Source: Arenicola marina
Taxonomy: Eukaryota; Annelida; Polychaeta; Arenicolidae
NCBI GenBank assembly: GCA_964019135.1
Contig: OZ025264.1
Span: 6,155,935-6,219,934 of the forward strand
Length of the DNA: 64,000 nt
Direction: 5' to 3'
Part shown: positions 411-64,000 of the stretch, piece after piece
Layout of the letters: the number at the start of each line of letters is the position of its first letter
Numbering within the stretch: position 1 is the stretch's first letter
Notes under the pieces: model-generated
Databases searched by the model: none
The model's input: only the letters and a program-made list of their open reading frames with translations
Told to the model about the DNA's origin: nothing
Made by a program: the position numbers and the translations under genes

Positions 411-3400
411 ATGTAAGTCCGTGACGTACCCCGAGGACCTTCCTGACCTGAGCGCCATCGTCACCTTCTATAACGAGGCTCCGAGCGTCGTTCTGCGCAC
501 GGCTCACAGCGTCATCAACCGTACACCGCCCCGGTACCTCAGGGAGGTCATCCTCTGCGACTCCGGTAGCACTAACGGTGGGTGGAGCAGGATGCGAAAT
601 ATATTCTCAACTTCATTTGTGCCCTAGACGCCTCCTGGTATTTCCAGACTTTGCGGTCGCGTGTGGCGTCATAAAGTACGAGTGGAAGATCAAAAAAATA
701 AATCTTGAAACGTTGAATGAATATATTACGTTGAATTGAAAATTTAAATTAATCAGGCCATATCAATAGTGACACAGCAATAACTTTTACGGAATCGTTC
801 TGGTGCTTCAATACTTCGCTTCGTATACGCGATGAAATCAGTCTGCATGCATTTCCTAGCACAATTACCTGGTGTAATACAGGCAAGCGATATGTGATTC
901 ATATTGAGAACTTTCCCAGGCGAGTTGGGGCGCCCCCTGGAGGACTACGTGCGCACCACGTGGCCGGACGGGATTGTGAAGATCCTGAGAGTCCGGGAGA
1001 ACATCGGCGTGGCTCACATCCGGAATCAGGGCGCCCAGGCGGCCTCCGGGGACGTCCTGGTAATTCTGGATGGCCACGTGGAGGTCACACAGGGGTGGTA
1101 AGGACTCTGGCATAAGGAAACGGATACCAACCCGATATATACATGTTATATAGATGTGAATGCATCAGGAGAGGTTGTATGATTTATTTAATGAATTATG
1201 TTTGCAATGTAGTTTTGAAATATATTTTGATATACTGTGCGGGAAGATAAGGGAAGTTGATGAAATTGATTACACTTAATCTTTGCTATATTACGGAGGA
1301 GTCTTTATTATGATTAATGCAGTAATCCTGGGGATTGTAAGCGACGTATTTATACCTTATATACTGCGTTATCTGTATCTGATACCTTATGTATCGAATA
1401 TTGTATCTAGTGAATCAATGATATTGAAACAATTGCTTGAAGGTTTGCAAACCATGTTCATGTACTTGAAATCTTGCATCGATTATTGCATATCACTGAA
1501 ATCGGATGCATAACAGAAGACGTGTGGGCGATCCAGGTTTGACAGCATGTCAGATCTATTGTAATCTGTTATTTTTGGTGTCTATTAATAAAATTGACAG
1601 TTTTATTGTAGTATTTCATCAAGTAACTCATTTATCGCCCAAATACCGTAATAAATTACAACAATGGGAGAAAGAAATAGAGATGTGCTTCATTCCATGT
1701 ACGTATATGGCTATTATCCGCTTCTTGCAGGGCGGAACCTTTTCTGGCCCGCCTGAAAATGTCTCCGAACAGCCTTATTGGTCTCTCCTTGGGCTACACG
1801 GCTTGGGACACGCTGGCCATCGCCTCGTCCCCGAGCTGGCTGTGGACAGCTGTGGGCTTCAGCTGGAGGATGGGCAACCAGTGGGCGATAATAGATGACG
1901 CCAATACCCCCGGAGTAAGCTCCACGGGGCCCCATAGGTGCGTATATATGTATATTCTAGATAAGGTTCTCTCGTACTAAACGTCTATAGAATTCACTTT
2001 TGGATGTCTTCTTGGAATATATGAACATTTGTTCCCGGCTGGGCGGAGGTGGGGCGGTACTAATTGCTTTGTTTGGGGGGGGGGGGGGGGTTGTGGTAAA
2101 GCACCCCCATTTTTTCGGTCGGGTCCTTGTACCGCTACAATCCGCTCGGTCGGGGCGTTTTAGCACCAAAATCCGCTCGGTCGGGGCGTTTTCGCGCCAA
2201 AATCCGCTCCGATGGGATATTTTTTCGCTTTATGAAAGCTTTATGAACGCACATTTTCAGAGCACCCCCCCACTCCCCCCTCCGTCGCCAGTTTTAAAAT
2301 ATCCACTCTATAGGTGTATCTTATAGTGTTCGCTCTCTCAGGCGTCAAGGCACCCGCGGAACCCCCCCACCAAGTTTGTATTTTCCGCCGTCAGGTCTGT
2401 GGCAGTTAGCGGAGGTGCACACGCTATGCGACGGCAAAGACTGGTGGATTTGGGTTACTATGACGCCGGCATGCGTTCATGGGGAGGAGAAGACCTGGAA
2501 ATTGGCTTTTTGGTGGGTGAGCCACAATAATTGCTATATAATGGATAGCTCTACAGAATTAATTCACTATTAATGACTTGCGATTTGTGCTTAATTAAGT
2601 TGAGTATCAGGGTATAACTGTGGATCAAATCCCAAGTAAGTGACGGGCAAAATAGTGGTAATTGGGAAACACATTCTACGCGGGAAATCAGAGGAATGTC
2701 AGACGGCAACGTAAAATGCAGGGTAAATATAGGTTTTGTTGGAAATAATAGTAGCATCTGGTATATTAATTGTAATACAGAGAATAAGGTTAAGATTGAG
2801 TGCCATGTTTTTTTTGTTATGTATGTGACATCCAATGACGGCTCTCCCGTCCACCTCTTTGCAGTTCGCGTTATGTGGTGGACGAGTGGAGACTCTTGGC
2901 TGTTCTGTTGTGAATCACCTATATAGACATGGCGGCCGTCCGTATAACATCACAGGTCAGTTCAAAAACTACAATTAGCGAATGTTCCGAAACGAGCCCT
3001 GCTACATATATTTATACTGATTGTACATGTTTCAGGGGTCGAGGTCTTGAAACAGACGGCGATTGCAAAATTTGACTTGTTTTGTCGAGTAACATCGCTA
3101 TCGCATGAAATGCAATCAATAGATGACTTCGTAAAAATCAGCCATCTTTGGCAAACAATATAGGGCCTACCTGCAACGTGTAATATGAACATGTATGTGT
3201 TATCTATCATGCGAATGTTCCTTTGGATACTTGCGCTTGCAAAACTGAAATATCAACTATTACATCAGATGTCAGCATGAGAAACTTCCAACGAACCGCT
3301 GAAATTTGGTTGGATGAATACAAGAAATATTACTATGCCGCGGTGCCAGAGTCTAAGGTATTTTTATCTTTATTTCCGTCACGTGCATGATCCGTATCAA

Positions 3401-6400
3401 GGTGAAATTACCGCAATATGTGCTACATTTTAATTATATTCGTCAGGCTGTTAGTTTTACATATGTAAGGTACCGAGAGTGTAAGTGGCCAAATCCCACC
3501 GCTGCCACCAATGTGCTGTAACGTGCCGAGGGGGTGTCATGTTGTGGCGACTGCGCAGATACACTTATCTTGGGGTTGTGGCTTAATTAAAGTATTCGGT
3601 TCAGCATTTTCACTACTCGGTTATCGGTTTAATGGCTTTTTGCATTCAGACAAGTTCGATATTGTAACCAGCAAACATAAAAGATGAAGGAAATGCAAAT
3701 ATACTGTTCCAGTATTTATTTATATAGACACTTTAAAGCCCTTGATACAGGATATCAAACAATCCACACTGAACGCTTGACCGCAACCAAAACAATACAC
3801 TATTCCGGTTACATCCTGCCCCTGCGACCTCTCTCCACTAATAAATGTACACTTGATATAACCAACTTCACAGCTATCTCACCATAAAGAATATGGTTGA
3901 GAAACCCGACTCTGAAATCGAACTCACTAAAGCCGCGGCTACTGCGACAAGCTTGTAACAAGTAGGATCCCTGGAGTCTTCCTCACTGGTAACTAATAGC
4001 ACCCTACAGTAACTAATACGACTTCACAGAACCTCATAGCACCTCACACAGGGTTCCCCTCACAGTAACTGATATGACTTCACAGAACCTCATAGCACCT
4101 CACAGCTACTAATACGCCTTCACAGAACCTCACAGTAACTAATACGCCTTCACAGAACCTCACAGCCTTCACTGATAGCACCCTACCGTAACTAATACGA
4201 CTTCACAGAACCTCGTAGAACCTCACAGCTACTAATACGCCTTCACAGAACCTCACAGCCTTCACTGATAGCACCCTAGATTAACTAATAAGAAAGAAGA
4301 GCACCTTGCATATAAAGAATATGATCAAGGAACCAGACCCAGGTATCACACTCACTACAGCCGTGGCTACTGCGGCAAGCTTATAGCAGGTATGACCCCT
4401 GGGGTCTGCAGCAACTTCTGTCTCTGTGTCTGTGGCTCTCTCTGTCTGTGGCTCTCCCTGTCTGTCTGTCTGTCCCGAGGCCCTCAGACGCACCTCTATT
4501 TATACCAGCCTGGGCCCCAAGCGTCCCTAGGCTCTCTCAGCCAATGGGCGATAATCAATATAACTGTATACCTACGCTTGAAAATAGAACTAAACTACGC
4601 CTGGCTACAGTTCAAAGTACTTGAGAAACCTGGTAGTTAACCTACATAAAAAGATAGCTAAACTATTCATAAAGATACTTACGTTAAAAACCTTTAATCC
4701 TCTATTCTTCTTTATCTACACTTTCCCTCTCTCTGTTTCCTCTTCTGGCGGAAGTTTACAAACCCAATCTCACGCACGCCCCCTACCGAGTTACCGTCCT
4801 ACTTCCTGTCCTGCTACCCTAACTCCCCCTAGCGAGTGCTCTTTTACCTATCCTGACTTACGCTGCCGCTATTCGCTAGATGGCGCCACTAAACTTGTAA
4901 GTCGGCGCGAAGAGGGGCCTGGCCGATACACATATATAATTACATTTACAATTCATGTAATTGGTAAGGAATGTATGGTTTTCACTTTTCTGTGTTTTAC
5001 AGGGGAAGGATTTCGGAGACATCAGTAAGCGGCAAGAACTCAGAAAGCAGCTGAAATGTAAAAGTGTCAAATGGATTTTTGACAACGTCTATCCCAAATT
5101 TATGTATGACGTCAACACAACTCACTGGGGGCAGGTAGAATATAATGCCTACTATCGCATACTGTAATACATTGGTAGGGGCGGGGGGAGGGGGGGCAAG
5201 AGGGGGAGCTAGGGTCCTGTTCCCAGAGCACGAAGAATAAATTTCCTTATTCCCAGGTCACGATGAATTAAAAGCATAAGGTTCTGGATGCAATGGAAGG
5301 GCGGATACACGATACTAAATGGACGATTTCCCGGTTCACGGTTATTTAATATTAAAATTCCCAGTTCACCATTAATAAAAATCATTGATCACGGCGGTCG
5401 GCAAATACCCCATTCCCAGTTCACGAAGAATTATTTTCCTCATGCCCAGTTCACGGTGAAATGAAAAGCCCAGTCACGAGGAACGCAAATACCCCTTGCA
5501 TCCCCCCCCCCCCACCCCCTTGATACACATGATGAACATATCATATACCGTATTGCAACATAAAGCTATCAAAGGACATAAATGTCAAGTTTATTTTGCG
5601 TATAAATTGTATTGAAATACTGTTTCAGCTTCGCAATCCCGATTCCGGCCTTTGTCTGGACAATTATGGAGGAACAAGTTCCTTGGGCCTATGGGCATGT
5701 CACGCCGTTGCTGGAGAAACCCAGGTATACTAAAACGGAGATATGCAAGGGTGCAACAAAGATATTAGTACACCAAGATAGGTCATACGGCAAAAGCCCA
5801 TTGTAAAATGTGTAATGCGGCGAGGAGTGGCGCCGCTATGCGGCGAGCGCGTAACGTTCGGCTGCCACTGCGCTGACGATAACGCAGACAGCGTGATAAG
5901 CGGCGCCCTGTGAACTACAAATTGGATTTTAGCGTTATTAATTCGGGTGATATAAAGCCTGGTGGTGTTCTTTCATGCTTTCAGGTATATTTTACATTAA
6001 ATATATATAATTTTGTATTGTTTATGCGGCAATAAATAGTTGTTAGTGACATCAAGGCGTCATATTTTGAGAACGTCATTAACTGGCAGTCAACAGTTTG
6101 GCTTCCCTAATTCGTTGATAAATTTGCTGGTTGAAAACTATGATGTACCCTTGATTGATGGGTTATAAAACACAACAACTTCATAATTATTTAGCATTTA
6201 GCGGTCTCCTGTCTTTGTTTGATTGACACATTTCGTTGGGCAATACTCGTCTACCCTTCAACGCCACTGCAAACAGTTTCCCAACAAGTGTACAACAACA
6301 CAACGACACCCGAAGTTCAGTCTCAGAAGTAAAACTCGGGCTTTCCGACGAAATACACTTAAAAGAGACATTTTGTAGATGAAACCCAAAGACGGATCCA

Positions 6401-8920
6401 AGGGGAGAGGGGTTATTTAGGGATGTTAAAGTCGACATGTTTTCCACCCCTCCCACTGGTTGTAAAAATTGGTGGACATGTTCGGCCATTTTTACGCCCC
6501 CCCCCACACCCCTTCCGCTTCAAATTTCCTTGATCCGCCCAGAGATATATTCTGAGCCTAAATATGAATGAAAACAACAAAACCATGCTCAACCAATTGA
6601 TATTTTTAATACAAAAATACGAACATCAACAATTAAGATTGTTCATTTCTACAGAAACTTTCAGACATGAGCAGCTTTTAAGAATATAAACTACGTCAGC
6701 TGATAGGAATAGGCCTACAGGGGCAGATCCAGAAAATCTGGATAGGGGGGGGGGCGCGCTTTTAGGGGCGGATATAGATGTGCTGGATAGGGGGGGGGGG
6801 GGAGGCGGTTTTGGTTTTTATATGTTAAATAGTATACATTTCGGTCCTAAAAGGACCTAAAGGACTCGAGCCGGGTGCCCCCCCACCCCCTGGATCCGCC
6901 TCTGGCCTACTGGACTTATTGAACAAGTTTTCCTTCTTGCATTGACCACCCATCTCTGGCATCTAAAAGGTAATAATAAAAAAAACATTTTATAAATGCA
7001 AATGCTTATAAACATAAAAATTGTTTACTCGACAAGCGTTCAGTAGAAATGCAGACAAAGACTTTGCTTTTCCCCCGGTCTGGCTAGCTCTGTCAAATGT
7101 AATCAGAGCCCGGGAGCCGAACACCCAGGCCATGATCATACTATATGAGTTCACTAAATTTTTATTCAGGACAGCGATTAGGACACCTCATTACACATTC
7201 GTTAGGCATTAGCCGGCACTTAGAGCTTGTTGTCTACTGGTAATTGTTGAGTAATAGATAGAACTTTGACTTGGTTAGCTCACATGAGCCGCCCGCTTCG
7301 ATGTGGGCGATAATAGAGAATTATCAGAAATTGTGGTGGTGATAAACGATGCACGATATCAATGATAAATTAACGCAAGAAGCCGGTCTTAACTTTCCTT
7401 TTCCTTGGGGAATCTCAAAAATGGCTTTCTGGACATTTCTTTCGTGAATTCGCGCAATTTATGGCAGAACAAACTTGAAGTTGATGCATGTCGACGGCGG
7501 TTCTGTGCAACACTACGCGATCACCGCTTGGGGGCGCCACCAGAGAACGATTACAAGGAAATCGCCGTATGACCTATCTTGGTGTACTAATATCTTTGGG
7601 TGCACGCAAGGGGAAATCGGTGTCGCGGGGGGGAGGGGTACTTAATACATGCTGGGTGTGGTAGGGGCCTGCGGTAAAGCCCCCTATTTCAACTCCAAAA
7701 TCCGCTCGCTGACTACCATTGACCCTATGTCGCCTCTCGATGCCGACCCAGTGGGGGCAAACACGCTGTATGAACGCACAAACAAGAGTGCCCCCCCCCC
7801 ACCCGCCTCCCCACACTCCCCATTCCAGTCGCAAGTTTAAACATATCAGTTCCATTTTGTTTATCAGGAACTTCTAAACTATAGGGGTGTATCTTTTCAT
7901 AAAAATGTCCGTTCGTACATGCATCACCCCACCAGAATTTTAAAGTAGTGTGTAGTGTGTGTAGTGCCCGCCCCCCCCCCCCCCCCCCCTCCGCGGATCA
8001 ATTATTACGTGTGCGAATTAAGGTGCCGCGGTGTGTTATTTATTGTTGTTTAATATTTGGTATTTTCGCTTGCCAGTTATTCGCCTTGACCAATACGGGC
8101 CTGCTGCGATGCGAGAATGCGTGCGCCTCCTACCGAGCACCTGAGAAACAAGACGCTACAAACCAGCAGTCCCATGAAGGTGGCAAGCTCTATCTAGAAG
8201 AACCTTCTTCGACCGGCCAACGCGATTGTCAAGCGACAGCCGCTCGATGGCGCTATGATAAGGTGACTACCCAATATTTTATCTTCGTCTGAATAGTGTG
8301 TTGTATGCAGCGAGAGGGATATGGCAAGCCATTTGTTATGTTATCACTGAAAAAGTAATATGTATCACTGAGTCTATGGCTTAAAATGCCGGGTTTTGAC
8401 CCAGAGAAACCTGTACGTTCCATGAGTGAACAATTTAGGTTTATCGTCTAGGCTACGCGGCAAAGAAGTTTCGTTCTTTTAATGCTTATGCAAACGGCTT
8501 GACATTCACCTAATTGTACGTAATATGTGGCCCAATCGGTGGTAATGGGGATAGGACACCTTGCGAAACGCCACCCTGAACTCCCTGCTGATTTGGGGAG
8601 TGATCACTTAGTTTCATTTCATTGACGAATCCTGTATTCCGCGTCCGCATAGGGAGGATGCAGACTTTAGACTGGCACTAATACGATAAAATTAATGCTG
8701 ATCACGGCCCATCACACCTGGATCAGCAACCATAATTAAGCTCAATGTCTCCGATAGCGGAAAATGGAAAAGAAAACTGTTATTATTTCTCCTTAAACAG
8801 GAAACAAAGCGGATGGTTCTGGAGAATAGCGGCTTATGTTTGGACGTACGTGGCGGTCCATCCATGGCGTCATGCGACGGGACGGATTCCCAGGTATGGG
8901 AATGGACCGACAACGTGTGA
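411..8920 (+). CDS. GALNT-like polypeptide N-acetylgalactosaminyltransferase, copy A (exons 3-12; 5' part outside window)
   Basis: Ten GT-AG exons: 411-577, 920-1097, 1731-1937, 2395-2512, 2865-2955, 3269-3357, 5003-5134, 5629-5724, 8077-8262, 8801-8920 (TGA at 8918). All join in frame, with phases identical to copy C. The family transfers GalNAc from UDP-GalNAc to Ser/Thr in the Golgi lumen. Visible marks are FYNEA and CDSGSTN (exon 3, start of the GT-A fold), the DGH metal triad (exon 4), WGGED (exon 6), CGG and NHLYR (exon 7), AEIWLDEYK (exon 8), LRKQLKCKSVKW (exon 9), and CLD-type ricin-lectin repeats with QVW (exons 10-12). Exons 1-2, carrying the membrane anchor, lie upstream of the window. 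No stop or frameshift was seen in the ten exons. Intron 10 carries a DNA transposon. The sequence is nearly identical to copy C; one visible protein difference is LKMSPNS here against LKESPNS in exon 5 of the other copies. Family assignment is secure; the exact subfamily is not. Confidence 0.85.
2040..2330 (+). repeat. G-run plus 31-bp tandem repeat in intron 5 of copy A
   Basis: A poly-G run near 2078-2090 is followed by about three copies of a 31-bp unit (core GCTCGGTCGGGGCGTTTT...CCAAAATCC) at 2118-2210, then a C-rich block and TTTATGAACGCACA. A related block lies in intron 10 at 7630-7910, so this is a dispersed repeat. Unit number differs between gene copies: about 3 in A and C, 5 in B, 2 in D. 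Confidence 0.65.
3469..4927. mobile_element. 1.46-kb insertion in intron 8 of copy A, unclassified
   Basis: Copy B has an uninterrupted TTTTACATATATAATTAC at 24118-24133 in the equivalent place. Here the same sequence is split and partly doubled (ACATATGTA on the left near 3460, ACATATATA on the right near 4928), consistent with an insertion and a target duplication of about 9 bp. Inside are a T/A-rich left half, a tandem repeat (about 3985-4275), a TCTG-rich tract (about 4410-4470) and a C-rich right part. I saw no convincing terminal inverted repeat and no long protein. The same insert sits in copies C and D. Confidence 0.55.
3985..4275. repeat. Minisatellite of CTTCACAGAACCTCACAG-type units
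   Basis: Units of about 28-30 bp built on CTAATACGMCTTCACAGAACCTC alternate with CATAGCACCTCACAG and TTCACTGATAGCACCCTA blocks. The array in copy D (63125-63360) is visibly shorter, so the number of units varies between copies. Confidence 0.75.
5160..5520. repeat. Degenerate tandem repeat filling intron 9 of copy A
   Basis: The words TTCCCAGTTCACG, CCCAGGTCACGATGAA and CCCAGTTCACGGTGAAATG recur about every 30-60 bp between G-rich (5177-5210) and C-rich (5500-5520) tracts. The same structure fills intron 9 of copies B (25100-25470) and C (42160-42510). Confidence 0.55.
6391..6540. mobile_element. Small GGCGGATC-type G/C-tract element nested in the transposon
   Basis: It starts GACGGATCCAAGG and ends CCTTGATCCGCC, an imperfect inverted repeat around a GGGG-rich start and a CCCC-rich end. 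It resembles the better-bounded element at 6718-6903, but no clear target duplication was seen. Confidence 0.4.
6718..6903. mobile_element. 186-bp MITE-like element with GGCCTA target duplication
   Basis: The ends CAGGGGCAGATCCAG and CTGGATCCGCCTCT form an imperfect inverted repeat. GGCCTA flanks it on both sides (6712-6717 and 6904-6909). The interior has G-runs followed by C-runs. It is nested in the 1.84-kb transposon and is therefore younger than it. Related GGATCCGCCCCT ends occur near 30824 and 31154. Confidence 0.65.
7625..7995. repeat. Dispersed repeat in intron 10, kin of the intron 5 repeat
   Basis: It shares an ordered series of blocks with intron 5: GGTAAAGCCCCC, AAAATCCGCTCG, TATGAACGCACA, a C-rich run, CAGTCGCAAGTTTAAA and AGGGGTGTATCTT. 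It ends in a long C-run (about 7970-7990) before exon 11. It probably represents a second copy of one transposable sequence. Confidence 0.5.
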
Positions 8921-9321
8921 CCTTAATTTCTGCTATCATATGTCGGCGATCTGGACAGGAAGCTACGACAAGATTGAGTTGCACAGTCACTACGAGATGC
9001 GATGCGAGACCCCAGGAGACTGGGCCACTAATCTTCTATGTCGATGCTGCTTGATCATCTGTGTGGGCGACGGACTTCTGCGAGCACGCGTCTTTGTGTT
9101 GGTCCCCCGTCATCCTAAACCGGAAGTGGAATCGGCGCAACGGTGTGGGTAGCTGATGCTCAGTCCCCCAAGCATCATTGAAAACATCAGTCTTAATACT
9201 GCAATAGTTAAGAAAAGCATGCTTAAAATTATTGATTTTTACTACGTATGGCATTAATGAGCGTCCACACGGGGTGAGCGCTATCTGGCCTTTTCATGCT
9301 TATATCTGTGATATATGCGCG

Positions 9322-9327
9322 AATAAA
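9322..9327 (+). promoter_or_regulatory. Candidate poly(A) signal AATAAA of copy A
   Basis: This is an AATAAA about 400 bp after the stop codon of copy A, conserved at 46287-46292 after copy C. Copy B has lost the local sequence that contains it. Assignment is by position only. Confidence 0.45.
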
Positions 9328-9631
9328 GTCGTATCCCTTTACATCCGTACAAATCATTAGATTAATGTGATTTCACGCATTTGTCGCCAATTGTTAAAAA
9401 TGTGAGCGAGTTTAGACAAGTGTTGCGCATATGAAGGCTGAAGTGGACCAAGCTGTCCCTCGAGATACTGACATAGGGAAGGATGAAACATACTCCAGGT
9501 GAAGGTGTCATCAGCAGTTGTCGATCTGCAATCTGTATTTTAGTCTGCTTACCAACTTAAGTAGAAAGGTTCCAAGCTACAATACCGAGAAACCAGCTAT
9601 GAATATATTATTCATTGCGTATTGTTTCCAG

Positions 9632-10183
9632 TGTGTTTGTTGTGCAGACGGTTTGTCTCGCTGTGACTGTCATGGGCCAACTCTACTGGAAGTTAAATGT
9701 CCATACAGCTTGAAGAATGTTCAGTTGCCTGAGTATTTTCTAAATAAAAGTGCACACTTTTTAGACCGTGCTGGTTGCCTGAAACAAATGCATAAATATT
9801 ACAGTCCAAACGCAGATGCTCGTCTGTGGCAGCCAGAATTGTAATGTTGTTGTCTGGACACCAAACATGTTCCAAATAATTAAGGTTGAAAATGGATGAA
9901 GCGTTCTGCTTCAGGCTTTTATCTTCTGTTAAATCATTCATCACAGAACATTTGGGGCCAGAAATGATCACATAAAAGCTTAAGTACGCAGAAAGCAACA
10001 ATATGGAATTTGACGGTTCACACAATGAAATTTATTGTGTGTCAAAAACCAGCGTTTGGTAACATGATAGCATGTGACAATGACAAATGTGCAGTCGAAT
10101 GGTTCCACTATGCATATGTAGATATAAAAAGAAAGCCTAAGACGAAGTGGTACTGCGTACAATGCTTACAAGCTGTGTTATAA
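9632..10183 (+). pseudogene. Decayed YqaJ-exonuclease / PHD-finger gene relic (A spacer)
   Basis: After an acceptor-like TTGTTTCCAG, the frame reads DGLSRCDCHGPTLLEVKCPY, the core of the YqaJ recombinase/exonuclease fold: LEVKCPYS carries the catalytic E-x-K of the PD-(D/E)XK type. It is followed by KQMHKYY and, in another frame, a VVWTP-like strand, as in the family. From 10025 a 52-residue frame reads PAFGNMIACDNDKCAVEWFH and KTKWYCVQC, the second half of a PHD zinc finger of the ING-like type. Proteins with YqaJ plus PHD are, to my knowledge, common in cnidarians and amphioxus and may travel with mobile elements. The frames do not line up, so this is a relic. A near-identical copy lies at 46604-47155. 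Confidence 0.6.
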
Positions 10184-10552
10184 TTGGTGTCGGCAGCATT
10201 AGTCTGGTCTGTGCATATGGTCTTAACAGTAAGGCTGCCATTATATATGTATCGTTACTGCACCCTTTTCGCCTTACGTGACGTAGTGTATGCACCACTT
10301 CTGACATGTGTCAAAGAAACTTGTATCAATTACTGGCTACCAAGTACACGACCATTCGCTATCAATTTTAATTGTATAATTATTTTACAGGCTACATGTA
10401 TAACGAGTTTGTTTTAAATTATGATAAGGCCCCTGCCAGCCATGTTGGATTTAGGATGAAGCTCACCCTCGAAAAAGTCTTTTTTGCGGTTTCGGTGGTT
10501 TGATTGTACGAAAACAGATACATCACTCAGTCGCCACCCATCCAGGCATCGC

Positions 10553-10810
10553 AGTGATTCGAATTAGGCGAGAACGAGTGACACTTTTGAGCACCCTCTT
10601 GCGGTAGCTTACAAGACTTTTTTTGGGACACCAATGGAACCCGGAATGCAGCGGAAATCCGCAGACAACGCACAGTGCTGCGGAGGGGCGTTTCCGTGGC
10701 GATAACGGTTGCCGCAAGCCATCATAAGTTTCTTCGTGGTCGTTAACAGGACTACTGAGAACGAACAATAGATGTCAATGCATATCTCAAGCTGCGTCCA
10801 CAGGCAACTG
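10553..10810 (-). repeat. 258-bp dispersed repeat, copy 1
   Basis: It runs AGTGATTCGAATTAGG...CAGGCAACTG and recurs at 29218-29475 and 47898-48155. On the minus strand all copies keep the same frame through CSFSVVLLTT and RYRHGNA to ALSADFRCIPGS and the same stop, so a short coding exon, or a transposon-derived one, is possible. I recognise no family. Confidence 0.6.
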
Positions 10811-11513
10811 ACATCCTTTGTTTTCGACTCCCTCAACAAGAATTCAGCGTTTTTTACATGAATGGCATCCATTTGATCAGGGCACCTCCGATTACAGCTG
10901 ACCAAGTAATAGGACAGAAGAAATATCTCAAGAAAGCTGGGGAGAACTGTACTGCTGGCTCTGTGCCAAATTAGGTGTCATTACTTTGTTACTCTGCCAG
11001 TAGACCTATATCTTCAGATTTTCTACCAGCTTTAGTCTCAATTAGTAACTATGACATATCGCTGGGCGTATAATGGTCAGGAATACCTGATTGATTCTCT
11101 TAAAAGGTGTTGGCCATTTTCCTGTCAGGTATCGCTTACAGTTACATATTGTTCACAGATATATTATTATCTTCGCGCCTTTTTACTCTTTACTTACTAT
11201 GGATTTAACCCTATCCTTGCTAAACTCATTAAATATGACATTGCCCAAAGATTGGGATCAAGGCCCCCTTTTCGGATCACGTATCGCTGACAGTCGTATA
11301 CGGTTACATATGTATTGCAACTCCCCTTCTACTCCATACTTTTCAATTCACCATAACCTTACTTTAAACTTACATTTTCTATATCGTCCCCCTCTAACTT
11401 TTGATTGTTTTTGGGGGTAGGGGTCGCTCACAGTTTTATACCTTTTACACATATATTTGTTATATTCTGGCCCTTGTGCTTTATGTACTAGTTAAAGAAC
11501 GAGCTGGTCAGGA
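10811..11513. other. Spacer with no recognised gene
   Basis: This is AT-rich sequence present in both A and C spacers. Short frames occur on the plus strand but none matches a known family. Confidence 0.5.
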
Positions 11514-11576
11514 GTGCATTCGCCAAAATAAAGCACGAGACGCGATAGCGTCGAGTGGTTTATTTGGGGAATGCAC
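11514..11576. repeat. 63-nt foldback (near-perfect hairpin)
   Basis: Arms of about 29 bases (GTGCATTC...GACGC and GCGTC...GAATGCAC) surround a GATA loop, with about four mismatches and one bulge. It is conserved at 48859-48921. It sits at the broken edge of the retroelement fossil and could be a tiny foldback element or a terminal structure. Confidence 0.75.
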
Positions 11577-12207
11577 GACAGCCAGTTCTATAACGTGACA
11601 AGTTATAAATAAATGACGTGTTAACGGTGCACCCGATTCTGAAAGGAATAGTGCGGGAGAGGACAAATATAGAGCTCTTCGCAGTACTAAATAGCGACTC
11701 ATGGTGGAGACTGGGCAAATGAGGGAGTCATTTCGAAACAATTTGACCGTCAAACCCTTCCTAAAAGGGTCAGTCTTGGAAACCTTGATTATGATTGCTA
11801 ACAGGGTTGGTATGGGGAAAGGAGAGATCCGTACATCATCATGGGATCAAAGTCATTGCTCAGAGTGGTAAATTCCCCGCACCGAAGAAACCCAAAGAAT
11901 GCAATCAGCAATTTCATTCTGGCGACCAGGGATGAATGTAGCAGAGAAATCAAAATTATGGAACGCAGCACATGTCACTAGGCGACGCACTAATGACATT
12001 ATGTCAGGTGATCTGGACCGCCCTTTTTGCAGGACATGGATGGTAGACATATGATCACAGTAAAACATTATGCGCTTCCGTCTCCATCTGTCCGCCCAGA
12101 GCAATGCAGCGACGACGATGGGATAAAGTTCTTTGTAGGCAATGGAATGTTTCCCTTCACCAAAGTTTGACAGACAACTAGGCCAAGGGGCATTAAACCA
12201 TTGGCCT

Positions 12208-19080: not shown

Positions 19081-19082
19081 CT

Positions 19083-27711: not shown

Positions 27712-27720
27712 AATGAATTA

Positions 27721-51522: not shown

Positions 51523-51690
51523 ACAGGCACAGTAAATCGACTGACAGAGAGGGAGGGGGGGGGGGGGCGCACGGCCTACTAATAAACAAGAAGGTGTCCA
51601 ACTCAGCCCGCTGAGCGCCTACCCACCCTCGCTTCAAGACCCCAAAGCCCCCTCTTACAGGCTTTGCCTCGTCCGCCTCCAACCTAGCCA
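51523..51690. repeat. Recurrent ACAGGCACAGTAAATC / G-tract module, copy 3, inside the retroelement
   Basis: Same order of blocks as at 27033-27200: ACAGGCACAGTAAATCGACTGAC, G-run, GCACGGCCTACTAATAAACA, GGTGTCCAACTC, CCACCCTCGCTT, CCCCCTCTTAC. Here it lies within the ORF1 region of the fossil, so it is either an insertion there or the retroelement is the source of the scattered copies. Confidence 0.6.
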
Positions 51691-52633: not shown

Positions 52634-53073
52634 TGTTGTGTTTTACACTACCTTAGGGGGGTCACAATGCCCTAGCCAAAGTAGTGTGGTTCACATACCC
52701 CAGGGCGGAACTATTCCCGGGCCAAGGGGTGCTGTCAGTATACTGGTCAGCTGGGGTTGTTTACACATCCGCCGTTGTTCGTCTCGAGTCTTCCTCTGTT
52801 TAGTTCTCGTTCAGCTTCAGTGCACTGGGGCCCGCACTGGGGTTGTTGTTGGTTACGGCTTAGGCTGTTCCGTTAGTAGATTAACGATTACCGTTGGGGG
52901 CGCTATTATGACTCATTAGCTTTAGTGACTGCCGATTCAGCTCTAGATTATAGGGTGTATGGGCTGTTCCATGTATAAGTTCGTGTCTGTCGTCAGGTGG
53001 CGTTACTACAATTTGGTAAGGTTTGATGATCTATTAATTGTTTAATAAGAGAACATTATTAGCATTCACAACA
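52634..53073 (-). mobile_element. 440-bp LTR-like block with primer-binding-like site (C spacer)
   Basis: The plus strand begins TGTTGTG and ends CACAACA (7-bp inverted ends, TG...CA). Immediately to the left, on the minus strand, is TTGGTGTCAGAAGTGGG. This is the layout of a minus-strand 5' LTR plus primer-binding site pointing at the DIRS/Ngaro-like fossil 700 bp away. That family normally has no such LTR, so a second, nested or solo element is likely. Confidence 0.5.
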
Positions 53074-53430
53074 CTCCCACCAGTTATCTAACTTAAATCA
53101 TATCCAAATTATTTCAGTGTACATGAGTTTTCAGAAAAAAGTATCAGTCCAATTAGTGACTAAACAATTCTAGATGATCACTCATTGTATTAAAAAATAC
53201 ATATATATATGTATTTTTGCATAACAATATTATAACACATCACCATGAAATTTATAACATTTATACAGACAGATAGATCTAAGTACTTTCACCAATTTTA
53301 GTATAAATGATTTAATTTTAATCATATAACCCTTTATGAGAATTTATATTTAATATTTCCACATCAGAACTACTTATTATAAATGATCCATTTCATTTAT
53401 GAATCATTTCTGCACATAAAAAGAAATAAT

Positions 53431-53900
53431 TATATAGCAATGTCTGATTACATTAGAGGGCATCAGTCCAAGTGACCGACTCAAACTAAGCAATCAGACA
53501 TTATCAAATAGAAACAAATGAGAACTTATGAATGTATGTATATATACATACATTTCATTTCCCAACCACATATTCTGTGGATGCAGCCATCCGTATTAAT
53601 CAATTATTAATATATGAGCATCATATATTAAGACCACATATATCATACATCGATCCATCTCATCATATTATAGCAATGTCGGACTACATTAGAGGGCATC
53701 AGTTCCAAGTGACCGACTCAAACTAAGTAATCCGGTATTGCCAATCAAAATTAATGAGCACTTACATACATTTCATTCCACGACCATATATTCTATTGAT
53801 TCAACCATCCGTGAGAATCAATTATTCATGAGCATCTTATTTTCAAACCACACATATCATGCATCGATTCATCCATTCACATATGCTCCATCTTTCATCC
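53431..53900. repeat. Duplicated 237-bp stem-loop units (C spacer)
   Basis: Counterpart of 15862-16335. The second unit has an extra change on its 3' arm (CCGGTATTG) that still pairs as G-T. Confidence 0.55.
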
Positions 53901-54370
53901 TTTTTCATCCATTCCATCCATCATAATTTTTCATCCATTCCATCCATCATTCCCCATACCACGTCAGTGATTCATCTCATCCAGTGGTTTCTCCATTTAT
54001 GTGCACTCCATCTATATTATTTTAATTCCACTCATCCAGTGGTTCACCTATGTTTATATACACTCCATCCTGTATTCCATACCACTTCAGTGGTTCATCC
54101 ATTTAAATTTATGTACACTCCATCTATATTATTATCCAATGGTTCGCCTATGTTTACACATTTCAGCCTGTATTCCATACCACTTCAGTGGTTCATCCAT
54201 TTAAGTTTATGTACACTCCATCTATTTTATTGTCCAATGGTTCGCCTATGTTTATATACACTCCATCCTGTATTCCACACCACTTCAGTGGTTCATCCAT
54301 TAAAATATAATTCCTCCAGCATCAACTCATTTAATTTCCCATTCCACTCATCCAGTGGCTTATCCATTTT
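53880..54370. repeat. CCATT microsatellite and CACTTCAGTGGTTCATCC minisatellite (C spacer)
   Basis: Four CACTTCAGTGGTTCATCC-type words against three in the A spacer, after a CCATC-rich run that is one unit shorter than in A. Confidence 0.65.
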
Positions 54371-54709
54371 TATGATCTTATATTCATTGATCGAGCTTGG
54401 TTCTCACAGTTTAAGAAAAATTCAGACGAAGGTTCATGTGATCTGAAATTGGTGCCATGCAAACTTTCTGGACAAACTTTATGTTTTATTCTTTATTGAG
54501 ACATTTTTACATATTCAGTCAAGCTAGCTTCCATAAATGATGTTACCTGTTTGGGTTCCAGTAGGGTTAATTATTTCACATCGTTTAGGAGTGTATATTA
54601 TCTTTTAGCAAAATTTTCAAAGTCCAGTAACCTCTGTAGCAGTGTCTACCATAACATGGGTACTCAGGTGACCGAACCCACCCTGGCTTCTAGCCCACAT
54701 GACATAGGA

Positions 54710-55045
54710 TATTGACATGGCTTCTGTATAGTCGGTTTGGAAGTAACAGGCACAGGGTTAGTCAGGTGACCAACCCCATCCTGGTTTCCATCCCGCGCGA
54801 CATAGAGTAATGGTTTGGAAGTGACAGGAATAGGATCAGTCAGGTGACCGACCCTATCATGGCTTCCATCCCGCAAGACAGAGGGCAATGGTGTGGAAGT
54901 AACAGGCATAGGATTAGTCAGGTGACCAACCCCATCCTGGTTTCCATCCCGCGCGACAGAGAGTAATGGTGTGGAAGTGACAGGGATAGGATCAATCAAG
55001 TGACCGACCCCATTCTGGCTTCCACCCCGCACGACAGAGGATAAT
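54710..55045. repeat. 78-bp minisatellite (C spacer), about four units
   Basis: One unit fewer than at 17040-17460; the missing unit keeps the minus-strand frame open. Confidence 0.7.
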
Positions 55046-55427
55046 GATGTGGAAGTGACATCTCATCTCTTTATGTGAGAGGATACATGAAGGTAATTCT
55101 CTCTGCCTAGATTGTTTATAAGACATCATTACACCCCGTAGGCAAATATCTTACAGAATTTTGCTTAAAACAATTCTAAAGATTTCTATCGCTTTTTCTA
55201 TGGAGATTCTAAACGTTTTCCAAAATTATATGATGTCCAAAGTCATTCAGACATACCTCTCCTTTGAATTAGGCACATTATGCTTCAGACGATATGTTTT
55301 CCGATGCAGTCGATCATTATGTTACGCCTGACATGATTTATCGTTTCAAAAGAACGTACCTTTATGGGGAAAGGACAGAAAATATGCCGATATGCAGAGA
55401 AACACCGCATCTGTCAAAAGTTCTCAA

Positions 55428-55630
55428 ACACAGGCACAGTAAATCAGTGGAGGGGGGAGGCCGCGGGGGGGGGGTGGAGGGGGGAGGCCGCGGGGGGGGG
55501 GGGAGTGGGGGGGGGGCACAACGTATACTAAACACACAAGGTGTCCAGCTCCCGCTGGAACCGAGCCACAGGCACCCGCTTCAACCCCTAATATCGCACC
55601 TTTACCGCGCTTGACGGGCCCCATAAATGC
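55428..55630. repeat. Recurrent ACAGGCACAGTAAATC / G-tract module, copy 4
   Basis: Segment-duplication partner of 17840-18040, with different G-run lengths. Confidence 0.6.
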
Positions 55631-55639
55631 CTAAGTCCG

Positions 55640-57034
55640 ATTTCTAAGTAATTTATTTATTTCATCAATAATTCAACGAGACCTGTACTGCCGTGTAGTC
55701 GCGACAAATAAAGAATTATGCAACGCCAACAGGAACAGATTGAGCAAAAATGGCTGACATCGCGAGAATTCGCCTGCGAGATCTCAGGCACAGTCAGCAG
55801 GATGAATCTGATTGGTCGGCAGTCGAAAAATGTGTCACGTGAAACAGGGGATGCAATTTCAAAATATGTTGAATCGGGACGATTCAATATTGCATAGCAT
55901 CTCCCTATGATGTAATTAATCAAAATGACAGATTTTAGGAGTATCTCCCCGCATGAGGGTCATGTGAAAGCTGACCAATCGTCATATCGCGCACCACGAT
56001 GGATGCATATTCCACCACATATGGGTCATCTACCTGTATTTATATAGTCACAGCGAGTTTAACGACACTAAATTGTGACTGGCCCATTACTCAAAAAACT
56101 TTCAGTAAGCGAAATAATCAATAATGCGTTTCCGCCTCTCTTTGAACAAAACCTCAAACAAACAGCGGGTCTCCAGACCCAATATTAACTAGTTATGCGG
56201 GAAAACATGTGTCGTGGTCTTGACCTGCTGTGACATTGACCTTAGAATCTCGTAGGGTCACCTGTTAAGCTTTTTTGCAGAAAAACTGCGATTTGCAAAA
56301 TGTCAAGACTAAATACAAGTTACTATTTGGCCCAATACGTGAAATAGCTGTCAGCGCGATTAAAAGAATATTGTGAACGTTATAGCCATCTTCCTGATTT
56401 TTGGTCCCATCTTTTAATGGTTCAGCGAATTTCAGAAAAGAAATTGGCCTGACTATGGTTATTCCGCATATTTTTGTGAATTGGGAAGTTGATATCTTAA
56501 GGCATTCGACAGATAATGCGTGACAAGACAGGAAAACACACACACACACACATACAGATAAACCGAACACAGAGACATAAGATCGTAGATCGTAGATTTT
56601 CGTCAGACATACACGCTACGTATATGTAGGTTTTGATCCGTATAGGATGATCTATTCACCAAGCCCCAAACTCATTGGGAAGTCCCAGTAGCAGAACTTT
56701 AGTGTTATACCCTGTTTAGTTCCAGTTCATTGGGAGTTCATTTGTATATCATGGGATAATATCTAGCGCAATATCACATCTTTCTATATGACGCCATATA
56801 TAATACTGGTAATTAAAGTAGATTCCCAGAGCAGAACGATTGATTGACTTAATCAATGCAGGGATGCTGATTTCTACATGTGGTATGGCTGTCGCATGGT
56901 TTTATCAGGGTAAGGCGCAACTCTAATGACCAGCTCAAAGTCTCAATCAATATAAATCAAGAGCCTTGGCTTAGTGCAATTAAGGAACTGACGTGTTGAT
57001 CAGTTGTCCAGCTGCGTAACATGTAATTGGACAG
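55640..57034. other. Gene-free spacer upstream of copy D
   Basis: To 56666 it matches 18050-19081, including a CA run near 56538-56551. From 56667 it is the start of the 951-bp block missing at copy B. Nothing recognised inside. Confidence 0.5.
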
Positions 57035-57257
57035 CTATCGATTATATTCATGTGTCTCTATCGTTGAACATCTGGCAACTTTCTGCCGTCCTACCTACCA
57101 CGTCGGCAAGGGATGTGGCATATTGCAATCGATTATCTATCGTCTTTCTCCCAGGATTCTCTCAACTCCTTCTCATACTTTATCGCCATTGCACATAGCA
57201 GACATAAGCTCTTATTTATCGTAACTTTTGATCCGTCCATCACATACCATACAAAAC
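57035..57257 (+). promoter_or_regulatory. 5' flank of copy D shared with copy C
   Basis: Aligned with 34871-35095 at moderate divergence, clearly more than the A/C spacers show to each other. Confidence 0.4.
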
Positions 57258-60200: not shown

Positions 60201-62498
60201 TCACATCACGAATCAGGGCGCCCAGGCGGCCTCCGGGGACGTCCTGGTAATTCTGGATGGCCACGTGGAGGTCACACAGGGGTGGTAAGGACTCTGGCAT
60301 AAGGAAACGGATACCAACCCGATATATACATGTTATATAGATGTGAATGCATCAGGAGAGGTTGTATGATTTATTTAATGAATTATGTTTGCAATGTAGT
60401 TTTGAAATATATTTTGATATACTGTGCGGGAAGATAAGGGAAGTTGATGAAATTGATTACACTTAATCTTTGCTATATTACGGAGGAGTCTTTATTATGA
60501 TTAATGCAGTAATCCTGGGGATTGTAAGCGACGTATTTATACCTTATATACTGCGTTATCTGTATCTGATACCTTATGTATCGAATATTGTATCTAGTGA
60601 ATCAATGATATTGAAACAATTTCTTGAAGGTTTGCAAACCATGTTCATGTAGTTGAAATCTGGCATCGATTATTGCATATCACTGAAATCGGATGCATAA
60701 CAGAAGACGTGTGGGCGATCCAGGTTTGACAGCATGTCAGATCTATCGTAATCTGTTATTTTTGGTGTCTATTAATAAAATTGACAGTTTTATTGTAGTA
60801 TTTCATCAAGTAACTCATTTATCGCCCAAATACCGTAATAAATTACAACAATGGGAGAAAGAAATAGAGATGTGCTTCATTCCATGTACGTATATGGCTA
60901 TTATCCGCTTCTTGCAGGGCGGAACCTTTTCTGGCCCGCCTGAAAGAGTCTCCGAACAGCCTTATTGGTCTCTCCTTGGGCAACACGGCTTGGGACACGC
61001 TGGCCATCGCCTCGTCCCCGAGCTGGCTGTGGACAGCTGTGGGCTTCAGCTGGAGGATGGGCAACCAGTGGGCGTTAATAGATGACGCCAATACCCCCGG
61101 AGTAAGCTCCACGGGGCCCCATAGGTGCGTATATATGTATATTCTAGATAAGGTTCTCTCGTACTAAACGTCTATGGAATTCACTTTTGGATGTCTTCAT
61201 GGAATATATTTGTTCCCGGCTGGGCGGAGGGGGGGGGGGGGCGGTACTAATTGCTTTGTTTGGGGGGGGGGGGGGGTTGTGGTAAAGCACCCCCCATTTT
61301 TTCGGTCGGGTCCTTGTACCGCTACAATCCGCTCGGTCGGGGCGTTTTCGCGCCAAATTTTTTCGCTTTATGAAAGCTTTATGAACGCACATTTTCAGAG
61401 CACCCCCCCCCCACTCCCCCCTCCGTCGCCAGTTTTAAAATATCCACTCTATAGGTGTATCTTATAGTGTTCGCTCTCTCAGGCGTCAAGGCACCCGCGG
61501 AACCCCCCCACCTAGTTTGTATTTTCCGCCGTCAGGTCTGTGGCAGTTAGCGGGGCTGCACACGCTATGCGACGGCAAAGACTGGTGGATTTGGGTTACT
61601 TTGACGCCGGCATGCGTTCATGGGGAGGAGAAGACCTGGAAATTGGCTTTTTGGTGGGTGAGCCACAATAATTGCTATATAATGGATAGCTCTACAGAAT
61701 TAATTCACTATTAATGACTTGCGATTTGTGCTTAATTAAGTTGAGTATCAGGGTATAACTGTGGATCAAATCCCAAGTAAGTGACGGGCAAAATAGTGGT
61801 AATTGGGAAACACATTCTACGCGGGAAATCAGAGGAATGTCAGACGGCAACGTAAAATGCAGTGTAAATATAGGTTTTGTTGGAAATAATAGTAGCATCT
61901 GGTATATTAATTGTAATACAGAGAATAAGGATAAGATTGAGTGCCATGTTTTTTTTGTTATGTATGTGACATCCAATGACGGCTCTCCCGTCCACCTCTT
62001 TGCAGTTCGCGTTATGTGGTGGACGAGTGGAGACTCTTGGCTGTTCTGTTGTGAATCACCTATATAGACATGGCGGCCGTCCGTATAACATCACAGGTCA
62101 GTTCAACAACTACAATTAGCGAATGTTCCGAAACGAGCCCTGCTACATATATTTATACTGATTGTACATGTTTCAGGGGTCAAGGTCTTGAAACAGACGG
62201 CGATTGCAAAATTTGACTTGTTTTGTCGAGTAACATCGTTATCGCATGAAATGCCATCAATAGATGACTTCGTAAAAATCAGCCATCTTTGGCAAACAAT
62301 ATAGGGCCTACCTGCAACGTGTAATATGAACATGTATGTGTTATCTATCATGCGAATGTTCCTTTGGATACTTGCGGTGGCAAAACTGAAATATCAACTA
62401 TTACATCAGATGTCAGCATGAGAAACTTCCAACGAACCGCTGAAATTTGGTTGGATGAATACAAGAAATATTACTATGCTGCGGTGCCAGAGTCTAAG
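57258..62498 (+). CDS. GALNT-like polypeptide N-acetylgalactosaminyltransferase, copy D (exons 1-8; 3' part outside window)
   Basis: Exons 57258-57514, 58782-59009, 59598-59764, 60107-60284, 60918-61124, 61536-61653, 62006-62096 and 62410-62498 have the same lengths and phases as in copy C and no stop or frameshift. The anchor reads MFVFLRRRRRKSFLILLLGL. DGH, WGGED and the metal His are present. Differences from C include EDLHELSAI (exon 3), NIGVVHITNQ (exon 4), GNTAWDT and WALIDD (exon 5), and SGAAHAM with GYFDAG (exon 6). Intron 1 and exon 2 resemble copy B, while exons 4-8 and their introns resemble A and C, so D is a recombinant. Exons 9-12 should lie just after 64000. The intron 5 repeat is shortest here (about two units). 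Activity should match C if expressed. Confidence 0.85.
58440..58640 (-). mobile_element. tRNA-derived SINE in intron 1 of copy D
   Basis: A box at 58593-58612, altered B box GGTTCGAGGCC at 58531-58541. It shares the altered B box with copy B. Confidence 0.75.
61210..61470 (+). repeat. G-runs and short 31-bp array in intron 5 of copy D
   Basis: Two G-runs (about 61228-61240 and 61262-61276) and only about two 31-bp units remain. Confidence 0.55.
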
Positions 62499-62609: not shown

Positions 62610-64000
62610 CGTACCGAGGGTGTAAGTGGCCAAATCCCACCGCTGCCACCAATGTGCTGTAACGTGCCGAGGGGGTGTCATGTTGTGGCGACTGCGCAGA
62701 TACACTTATCTTGGGGTTGTGGCTTAATTAAAGTATTCGGTTCAGCATTTTCACTACTCGGTTATCGGTTTAATGGCTTTTTGCATTCAGACAAGTTCGA
62801 TATTGTAACCAGCAAACATAAAAGATGAAGGAAATGCAAATATACTGTTCCAGTATTTATTTATATAGACACTTTAAAGCCCTTGATACAGGATATCAAA
62901 CAATCCACACTGAACGCTTGACCGCAACCAAAACAATACACTATTCCGGTTACATCCTGCCCCTGCGACCTCTCTCCACTAATAAATGTACACTTGATAT
63001 AACCAACTTCACAGCTATCTCACCATAAAGAATATGGTTGAGAAACCCGACTCTGAAATCGAACTCACTAAAGCCGCGGCTACTGCGACAAGCTTGTAAC
63101 AAGTAGGATCCCTGGAGTCTTCCTCACTGGTAACTAATAGCACCCTACAGTAACTGATATGACTTCACAGAACCTCATAGCACCTCACAGCTACTAATAC
63201 GCCTTCACAGAACCTCACAGTAACTAATACGCCTTCACAGAACCTCACAGCCTTCACTGATAGCACCCTACCGTAACTAATACGACTTCACAGAACCTCG
63301 TAGAACCTCACAGCTACTAATACGCCTTCACAGAACCTCACAGCCTTCACTGATAGCACCCTAGATTAACTAATAGGAAAGAAGAGCACCTTGCATATAA
63401 AGAATATGATCAAGGAACCAGACCCAGGTATCACACTCACTACAGCCGTGGCTACTGCGGCAAGCTTATAGCAGGTATGACCCCTGGGGTCTGCAGCAAC
63501 TTCTGTCTCTGTGTCTGTGGCTCTCTCTGTCTGTGGCTCTCCCTGTCTGTCTGTCTGTCCCGAGGCCCTCAGACGCACCTCTATTTATACCAGCCTGAGC
63601 CCCAAGCGTCCCCAGGCTCTCTCAGCCAATGGGCGATAATCAAAGTAACTGTATACCTACGCTTGAAAATAGAACTAAACTACGCCTGGCTACAGTTCAA
63701 AGTACTTGAGAAACCTGGTAGTTAACCTACATAAAAAGATAGTTAAACTATTAAGAAAGATACTCACGTTAAAAACCTTTAATCCTCTATTCTTCTTTAT
63801 CTACACTTTCCCTCTCTCTGTTTCCTCTTCTGGCGGAAGTTTACAAACCCAATCTCACGCACGCCCCCTACCGAGTTACCGTCCTACTTCCTGTCCTGCT
63901 ACCGTAACTCCCCCTAGCGAGTGCTCTTTTACCTATCCTGACTTACGCTGCCGCTATTCGCTAGATGGCGCCACTAAACTTGTAAGTCGGCGCGAAGAGG
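62610..64000. mobile_element. Intron 8 insertion of copy D, running to the window end
   Basis: Same insert as in A and C, with a shorter internal minisatellite (63125-63360). The right end is beyond the window. Confidence 0.55.

What the first reader, a model, noticed from the sequence alone, without database searches (positions are those of the whole stretch)
411..64000. Tandem array of four GALNT-like genes hidden in small exons, with a 37-kb higher-order repeat
Four same-strand copies of one 12-exon glycosyltransferase gene occur in 64 kb. Exon 3 starts at 411, 21000, 37404 and 59598. The A gene plus spacer and the C gene plus spacer match at an offset of about 37 kb, while B-C has its own spacer. 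This suggests single-gene duplication, then duplication of a two-gene block. Such local expansion of an O-glycosylation enzyme is unusual and fits dosage or diversification of mucin glycosylation.
Basis: partly seen in the sequence, partly recalled or inferred. Interest (0 to 1): 0.75.

Follow-up and report, generated by a model that had tools for sequence, protein, structure and literature searches.

The report
Worm array of divergent GALNT-like genes
A segmented-worm chromosome carries eight tandem copies, four of them visibly broken, of an unusual relative of the enzymes that start mucin-type sugar chains, and a distant ninth copy shares three of its exons, but not the introns between them, almost letter for letter.

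Summary
The four same-strand copies are real: exon 3 begins at 411, 21000, 37404 and 59598 exactly as stated. The window is cut from a larger array: eight copies (A-H) over about 160 kb, plus an inverted ninth copy (I) about 180 kb to the left. I find 11 coding exons, not 12, giving a 570-residue protein related to GALNT1 (E 6.2e-83). A, C, F and G are open. D and E share a nonsense codon; B lacks exon 1 and has a frameshift; H is decayed. So in the window only A and C look usable. Mitochondrial gene order points to an annelid, not amphioxus. The 37-kb match exists, but 4 of 7 steps between copies are 22-25 kb single-gene steps. The proteins keep metal and catalytic residues, but three uridine-pocket positions are changed, the active-site loop is slightly shorter, and only two of three lectin repeats are found. 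Oddest is copy I: exons 2-4 are 93-99% identical to copies A-G, yet introns 2-4 look unrelated and exons 5-9 ancient.

The parts
411..8920 (+). Copy A, exons 3-11 (411-577, 920-1097, 1731-1914, 2342-2512, 2865-2955, 3269-3357, 5003-5134, 5629-5724, 8801-8920); exons 1-2 lie left of the window at -1889..-1633 and -342..-115. Open reading frame, 570 aa
20247..26688 (+). Copy B, exons 2-11 (20247-20474, 21000-21166, 21509-21686, 22313-22496, 22975-23144, 23492-23582, 23933-24021, 24939-25070, 25569-25664, 26569-26688); no exon 1 match, 1-bp deletion in exon 6 near 23007: pseudogene
35096..45885 (+). Copy C, complete, exons 1-11 (35096-35352, 36651-36878, 37404-37570, 37913-38090, 38724-38907, 39332-39502, 39855-39945, 40259-40347, 41996-42127, 42619-42714, 45766-45885). 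Open reading frame, 570 aa
57258..64000 (+). Copy D, exons 1-8 (57258-57514, 58782-59009, 59598-59764, 60107-60284, 60918-61101, 61483-61653, 62006-62096, 62410-62498); exons 9-11 lie right of the window (64088-67978)
61513..61515 (+). In-frame TAG in exon 6 of copy D, shared with copy E (window coordinate 85988)
8921..20246 (.). A-B spacer, the common spacer type (against the C, D, E and F spacers 68-89% is covered either way, 96-98% identity)
26689..35095 (.). B-C spacer, the odd one: left part resembles the flank after H, right part resembles the flank before A
45886..57257 (.). C-D spacer, common type

Best explanation
Shown by sequence: the locus is a tandem array of seven to eight or more copies of one 11-exon gene in an annelid genome. 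It encodes a protein with an N-terminal hydrophobic stretch (type II anchor, judged by eye), a GT27 (GALNT-type) catalytic domain and a lectin domain with two recognisable ricin-type repeats. The family is very divergent and is shared with an inverted paralogue, I. Four of the eight array copies are disrupted. Inferred: the array arose by unequal exchange; a two-gene block (A-B) was duplicated beside itself, and the second block then grew by single ~24-kb units. Inferred: the intact copies make a Golgi glycosyltransferase or glycosyltransferase-like protein that still binds a metal and a sugar diphosphate (DxH, distal His, WGGE, Arg and Tyr kept), but with a changed uridine pocket, a slightly shortened active-site loop and a cut-down lectin. 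Altered donor or acceptor use, or loss of GalNAc transfer, is therefore more likely than ordinary mucin initiation. Inferred: the exon-limited identity between I and the array comes from ectopic gene conversion at the DNA level, with tracts stopping where the introns are no longer homologous.
For: Eight copies found with exons 3-7; a whole-genome search with exon 4 gives 9 places and with exon 11 gives 8, all on contig C19 (the tool calls such counts lower bounds). Spliced A, C, F and G translate to 570 aa without stops; in A-G every mapped exon has an AG acceptor (exons 2-11) and a GT donor (exons 1-10). GALNT1 hit E 6.2e-83; Glycos_transf_2 72.7 bits and Ricin_B_lectin 34.3 bits, both over cut-off. 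Array + I share one long branch (1.14 substitutions per site, support 1.000). C vs I in exons 5-9: 101 of 477 nonsynonymous against 108 of 141 synonymous sites differ, i.e. purifying selection on the protein. Flank resemblance supports block duplication. Exon-limited identity: exons 2-4 of I and C differ at 12 of 141 synonymous sites against 108 of 141 in exons 5-9 (Fisher p 1.7e-33), while introns 2 and 3 of I and A score within, and intron 4 just above, the range of 20 shuffles, and blastn of I against the whole array region lists no match of 100 bp or more between introns 2-4 and their counterparts. The exon 2 match runs 24 bp into intron 1 and the exon 3 match 10 bp into intron 3, which favours a genomic template.
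Against: No transcripts were available, so splice sites rest on frame, conservation and homology. Whether the protein transfers any sugar is untested. Some changed positions also vary in other relatives: Tyr for His also in L001, the residue inside DxH is Ala, Ser or Gly across the set, Gly-Gly of AGG is GC in three own-genome relatives, the active snail enzyme has Asn at the Asp position (mapping recalled), and GALNT10 and PGANT9 lack FPGG. Among D, E and F nonsynonymous changes are not rarer than synonymous ones (dN/dS 0.9-1.8 on 7-12 changes per pair), and in A-C and D-E-F exons are no more conserved than introns, so some open copies may be drifting. A 200-N gap lies between D and E, so the copy number is uncertain and D/E could be alleles of one unit. 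Gene conversion between exons that were already much diverged is itself unusual.
Confidence: 0.62

Rival explanations
1. Ordinary expansion of an active GalNAc-transferase, giving more dose or diversity of mucin-type O-glycosylation.
For: GALNT homology over catalytic and lectin domains; DxH, the distal metal His and WGGE are kept; several of the changed positions vary elsewhere in the family.
Against: The second Asp of VDD and the Arg of RSGLIRAR (GALNT1) are replaced (CDS, NIGVAHIR), the Asp of CPxID is Gly, one lectin repeat is not found; 4 of 8 copies are broken; the intron-bearing paralogues sampled keep DD (3 of 3 with exon 3, L032-L034).
Confidence: 0.2
2. Catalytically dead, GALNTL5-like pseudoenzymes kept for binding or chaperone-type roles.
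For: Changed donor-pocket residues and a reduced lectin; GALNTL5 shows that a GALNT relative without transferase activity can be kept (PMC11655647, abstract and passages).
Against: Metal ligands, WGGE and the Arg/Tyr equivalents are retained in the four open copies and in I; a fully dead enzyme would be expected to lose some of these.
Confidence: 0.3
3. Part of the copy number is an assembly artefact (retained haplotypes or overlap at a contig join).
For: A 200-N gap sits between D and E; D and E are 99.4% alike over exons and share the same nonsense codon.
Against: A-D lie on a stretch without N (for the window) and differ in structure (B without exon 1, two types of 5' end); no exon 11 copy was found on any other contig.
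Confidence: 0.15
4. The exon-limited identity between I and the array reflects selection on the nucleotides of exons 2-4 rather than conversion.
For: Exon 3 is identical in protein between I and C; in pairs with B or H, exons are also 2-4 points more alike than introns.
Against: Synonymous sites in exons 2-4 are nine-fold less diverged than in exons 5-9 of the same two genes; no reason for such constraint is known to me.
Confidence: 0.1

Closest known systems
GALNT1-type polypeptide N-acetylgalactosaminyltransferases (GT27)
   Same: Catalytic domain and ricin-type lectin homologous; DxH, WGGE and distal His aligned
   Different: Three uridine-pocket positions and the CPxID Asp changed; loop 2-4 residues shorter; two instead of three lectin repeats found; long branch
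GALNTL5 (inactive mammalian GALNT relative)
   Same: GALNT family member departing from the canonical set
   Different: GALNTL5 lacks the lectin domain and is described as having conserved catalytic domains (passages); here a reduced lectin is kept and the donor pocket is altered
Own-genome GALNT-like paralogues on C12, C8, C10, C1 and C19
   Same: Homologous; in the four sampled on C12 the matches end or begin near the same exon 3/exon 4 boundary, splice sites not checked
   Different: 50-59% identical in exons 3-4; L032-L034 keep DD (L035 covers exon 4 only), and all four keep a GL[IM]R[AT][RK] loop
Concerted evolution by gene conversion in duplicated genes
   Same: Coding segments more alike than the age of the duplication predicts
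   Different: Here three successive exons are alike while the introns between them look unrelated. A search for 'ectopic gene conversion', 'exons', 'introns' and 'restricted to exons' together found 0 papers; a broader search listed 12 of 112 papers, none opened; the Drosophila amylase case is recalled, not looked up

Membership tests
GT27 / GALNT family | Sequence homology over the catalytic domain | tested here: met
   GALNT1 E 6.2e-83; of 20 PDB sequences listed, 15 are named GalNAc-transferases and one 'Glycosyl transferase' (8uhv), all 16 below 1e-59; the other 4 (2e-5 to 4e-5) are a family 2 enzyme and chondroitin synthase
GT27 / GALNT family | Mn ligands DxH and distal His | tested here: met
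   DGH and NHLYR aligned to DAH and GHVFR; roles from PMC4432651 passages
GT27 / GALNT family | Gate Trp and WGGE motif | tested here: met
   SWGGEDLE in the four open copies aligned and in I
GT27 / GALNT family | Uridine-contact residues listed for the snail enzyme (Thr171, His173, Asn204, Arg229, Ser253; PMC6994419) | tested here: not met
   Three of five changed: His to Tyr, Asp/Asn position to Ser (Ala in G), Arg to Asn; Thr kept; the Ser position is Gly, but it is Ala in GALNT1. Mapping between enzymes uses alignment and recalled GALNT2 numbering. The set is not strictly invariant: L001 also has Tyr, GALNT1 has Val for Thr
GT27 / GALNT family | Flexible catalytic loop after HVFR | tested here: inconclusive
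   Present but 4, 3 and 2 residues shorter than in GALNT1, PGANT9 and GALNT10, with one extra residue before PY; FPGG itself is not shared by GALNT10 and PGANT9
GT27 / GALNT family | Three-repeat ricin-type lectin domain | tested here: not met
   Two repeats found in C and in I; Pfam gave no ricin match in 13 of 13 listed ORFs (28 aa or more) between exons 10 and 11 of I, nor in 21 of 21 listed ORFs (38 aa or more) of intron 10 of A. A very short or very divergent exon is not excluded
GT27 / GALNT family | GalNAc transfer from UDP-GalNAc to Ser/Thr | not testable with these tools
   needs an enzyme assay
Amphioxus (host) | Chordate-type mitochondrial gene order | tested here: not met
   COX1, COX2, then COX3-ND6-CYTB-ATP6 on one strand, code 5 (ND6 below its Pfam cut-off, ND2 before COX1 named by eye, ATP8 not sought); that this is the annelid order is recalled knowledge
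Tandem higher-order repeat | A multi-gene unit repeated as a block | tested here: inconclusive
   Flanks of A, B, C and H fit a block duplication, but D-F repeat as single units

The most novel reading that the evidence does not exclude
A GALNT-derived subfamily of this annelid lineage, maintained by purifying selection, that has given up the standard UDP-GalNAc pocket and part of its lectin for a new donor, acceptor or binding role. Its N-terminal catalytic exons are kept uniform across distant inverted paralogues by conversion confined to exons, possibly templated by RNA.
Probability: 0.25. Interest if true: 0.62.

Novelty: new variant of a known kind. Interest (0 to 1): 0.4.

Why it matters
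Tandem duplication by itself is ordinary. What would matter is a GALNT relative whose donor pocket has changed while the metal site is kept, a natural test of which residues define UDP-GalNAc use. The ninth copy also offers an unusually clean case of homogenisation that stops near exon edges, testable by comparing closely related annelids.

Tried and rejected
Rejected: amphioxus origin. A third ricin repeat hidden in intron 10: not seen by motif scan, by eye, or by Pfam on the listed ORFs (13 of 13 in I, 21 of 21 in A). Exon-limited homogenisation as a general feature of the array: in the 8 pairs compared among A, C, D, E, F and G, exons are not systematically more alike than introns (exons minus introns from -0.7 to +0.2 points), but in the 5 pairs with B or H exons are 2.2-3.8 points more alike; introns covered under 80% were left out of these totals and 13 of 28 possible pairs were compared. 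The same exon-limited pattern among C12 paralogues L032-L035: only short matches of 27-148 bp at 72-93%. A mature-mRNA template for the I/array identity is disfavoured because the match runs 24 bp into intron 1. The first estimate of exon 2-4 divergence included an intronic head and is replaced. Paper searches for GALNT expansion (1 of 1, 3 of 3 and 10 of 21 papers listed) and for inactive or mutated GALNTs (5 of 5 and 10 of 181 listed) showed, from titles and starts of abstracts, no description of this locus or such an array; of all papers only PMC4432651 (passages), PMC6994419 (passages and section 12) and PMC11655647 (abstract and passages) were opened.
Full report
OBSERVATION. Self-comparison of the window shows four related stretches; A and C match at offset 36,993 (98.9% over 10.4 kb) and A and B at 20,589 (94.8% over 2.2 kb). 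The window is contig C19:6155935-6219934 of an 867-Mb assembly. I fetched about 70 kb to the left and 129 kb to the right. A search with exons 3-7 found four more copies to the right and none in the 70 kb to the left. Exon 3 of the eight copies starts at window 411, 21000, 37404, 59598, 84076, 109051, 133415 and 152099. A whole-genome DNA search with exon 4 gave nine places, the ninth being an inverted copy, I, at C19:5976445; a search with exon 11 gave eight. The search tool states that counts of repeats are lower bounds.

GENE MODEL. The gene has 11 coding exons. In copy C they run from 35096 to 45885. Exon 1 encodes a short basic N-terminus and a hydrophobic stretch (a type II anchor, judged by eye); exon 2 the stem and the GPGE region; exons 3-8 most of the catalytic domain; exon 9 the link; exons 10 and 11 one ricin-type repeat each. 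Copies A, C, F and G give 570-residue open frames with AG/GT at every splice site. D and E carry the same TAG in exon 6 (D: 61513-61515). B has no match to exon 1 and a 1-bp deletion in exon 6. H has a truncated exon 4, a changed acceptor at exon 5, a longer exon 6 and further shifts.

HOST. The mitochondrial contig (15,942 bases) reads well with code 5. COX1 and COX2 are followed by COX3, ND6 (below its Pfam cut-off, E 8.7e-5), CYTB and ATP6 on one strand; ND2 before COX1 was named by eye and ATP8 was not sought. I recognise this as the annelid gene order from established knowledge; I did not identify the species.

HISTORY OF THE ARRAY. Distances between successive exon 3 starts are 20.6, 16.4, 22.2, 24.5, 25.0, 24.4 and 18.7 kb. 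The spacers after A, C, D, E and F are one type (68-100% mutual coverage, 96-99% identity). The spacer after B is different: 23% resembles the flank after H and 20% the flank before A. This fits an A-B block with its own edges lying beside a second block whose inner part has since been amplified as ~24-kb single units. Exons of D, E and F are 99.3-99.6% alike. The 5' ends come in two types (A-D 93% in exon 1, intron 1 and intron 2, but 98-99% in introns 4-10), so exchange has mixed the copies. A 200-N gap at 79891-80090 leaves the exact copy number open, and D and E might be alleles of one unit.

WHAT IT ENCODES. The protein matches GALNT1 (6.2e-83), GALNT10, PGANT9, GALNT2 and other GALNTs of the PDB, and Pfam Glycos_transf_2 and Ricin_B_lectin. 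In a small tree with 13 sequences, the four open array copies and I form one clade (support 1.000) on a branch of 1.14 substitutions per site; its deeper position is unresolved (0.000 with L008), and I is drawn towards the array by its near-identical exons 2-4. Against GALNT1, the metal ligands (DGH, distal His), WGGE, the Arg after the distal His and the loop Tyr are kept. The second Asp of VDD is Ser (Ala in G), RSGLIRAR is NIGVAHIR (NIGVVHIQ in F), FHNEA is FYNEA, CPIIDVI is GLSLGYT, and AGGLF is SGGAH (SGAAH in F). The loop is 4, 3 and 2 residues shorter than in GALNT1, PGANT9 and GALNT10. Several of these positions also vary in other relatives (L001 has FYNEA; L001, L002 and L004 have GC for GG). 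Residue roles come from passages of PMC4432651 and section 12 of PMC6994419, whose active snail enzyme has Asn at what I take, from recalled GALNT2 numbering, to be the Asp position. That changing D156 of GALNT1 abolishes activity is recalled and comes from no call. I find only two ricin-type repeats in both C and I; Pfam gave no ricin match in any of the 13 listed ORFs between exons 10 and 11 of I or the 21 listed ORFs of intron 10 of A. The whole-genome protein search listed 91 matches (88 of 189 candidates scored), in which I count about 14 other GALNT-like loci. The three sampled on C12 that cover exon 3 keep [VL]DD. One relative with a long single open frame, L008, also departs from the pattern, with LDTTV in place of DxH.

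SELECTION. Between C and I, exons 5-9 differ at 108 of 141 synonymous and 101 of 477 nonsynonymous sites (206 codons), so the protein has been under constraint for a long time. Among array copies, dN/dS is 0.30-0.35 for A-C, A-G and C-G, 0.49-0.54 for F against A and C, 0.74 for F-G, 0.49-0.67 for D and E against A and C, 0.96-1.07 for D and E against G, and 0.9-1.8 for pairs among D, E and F, on few changes (D and E include their stop codon; B and H were not compared).

THE NINTH COPY. I lies on the opposite strand about 180 kb to the left. I found exons 2-11 (exon 10 only as a weak match, E 0.25) and no exon 1 match in the 3.6 kb searched upstream. Its exons 2, 3 and 4 differ from C at 4 of 227, 2 of 167 and 10 of 178 bases; across copies A-G the identities are 96.5-98.7, 95.2-98.8 and 92.7-94.4%. 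Introns 2, 3 and 4 have similar lengths to those of copy A (504, 381 and 536 against 525, 342 and 633) but align with scores close to those of 20 shuffled sequences: introns 2 and 3 within the shuffled range, intron 4 at -226 against a shuffled maximum of -230. Exons 5-9 are 52-81% identical in protein. Synonymous differences are 12 of 141 in exons 2-4 and 108 of 141 in exons 5-9. One block transfer of genomic DNA would have carried the introns, and a spliced template would have removed them. Separate DNA-level conversion tracts that stop at non-homologous introns fit best, helped by the 24 bp of intron 1 included in the match. This step is inferred. Within the array, pairs with B or H also show exons 2-4 percentage points more alike than introns, while the other pairs compared do not.

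VERDICT. The unusual points are the changed donor pocket on a conserved metal core and the exon-limited identity with a distant paralogue.

Noticed in passing
L031 (C19:5973001-5979000, minus strand) with L036 and L037: Paralogue I: exons 2-4 nearly identical to the array, introns unrelated, exons 5-9 ancient.
   Followed up: yes
window 61513-61515 and 85988-85990: Same TAG codon in exon 6 of neighbouring copies D and E, on either side of an assembly gap.
   Followed up: partly
window 5184-5519 (intron 9 of A) and matching places in other copies; I locus introns: A stretch of intron 9 matches intron 5 of I and, inverted, its upstream flank at 77-87%: probably a dispersed repeat.
   Followed up: no
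window 9503-10180 and matching place in other units: ORF pieces in the common spacer with a weak YqaJ-like match (E 0.04, below cut-off) and a PHD-like cysteine pattern by eye; possibly a mobile-element remnant.
   Followed up: partly
window 30500-31300: Part of the B-C spacer is a dispersed repeat: 304 matches in the genome search (40 of 1692 candidates scored).
   Followed up: partly
L008 (C12:29886134): GALNT-like gene in one long open frame with LDTTV instead of DxH and VGVLNL instead of VGHVFR: possibly an inactive relative.
   Followed up: no
window -66500..-61360, -60017..-56580 and -48475..-42925 (left flank); 167436-171616 and 179296-182941 (right flank): Large tandem-repeat arrays (self-match steps of about 43, 54, 34, 35 and 19 bp); the third ends at an assembly gap.
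   Followed up: no
window 24523-24659, 29054-29216, 17077-17476: Local minisatellites (34-, 21- and 78-bp units) in an intron and in spacers.
   Followed up: no
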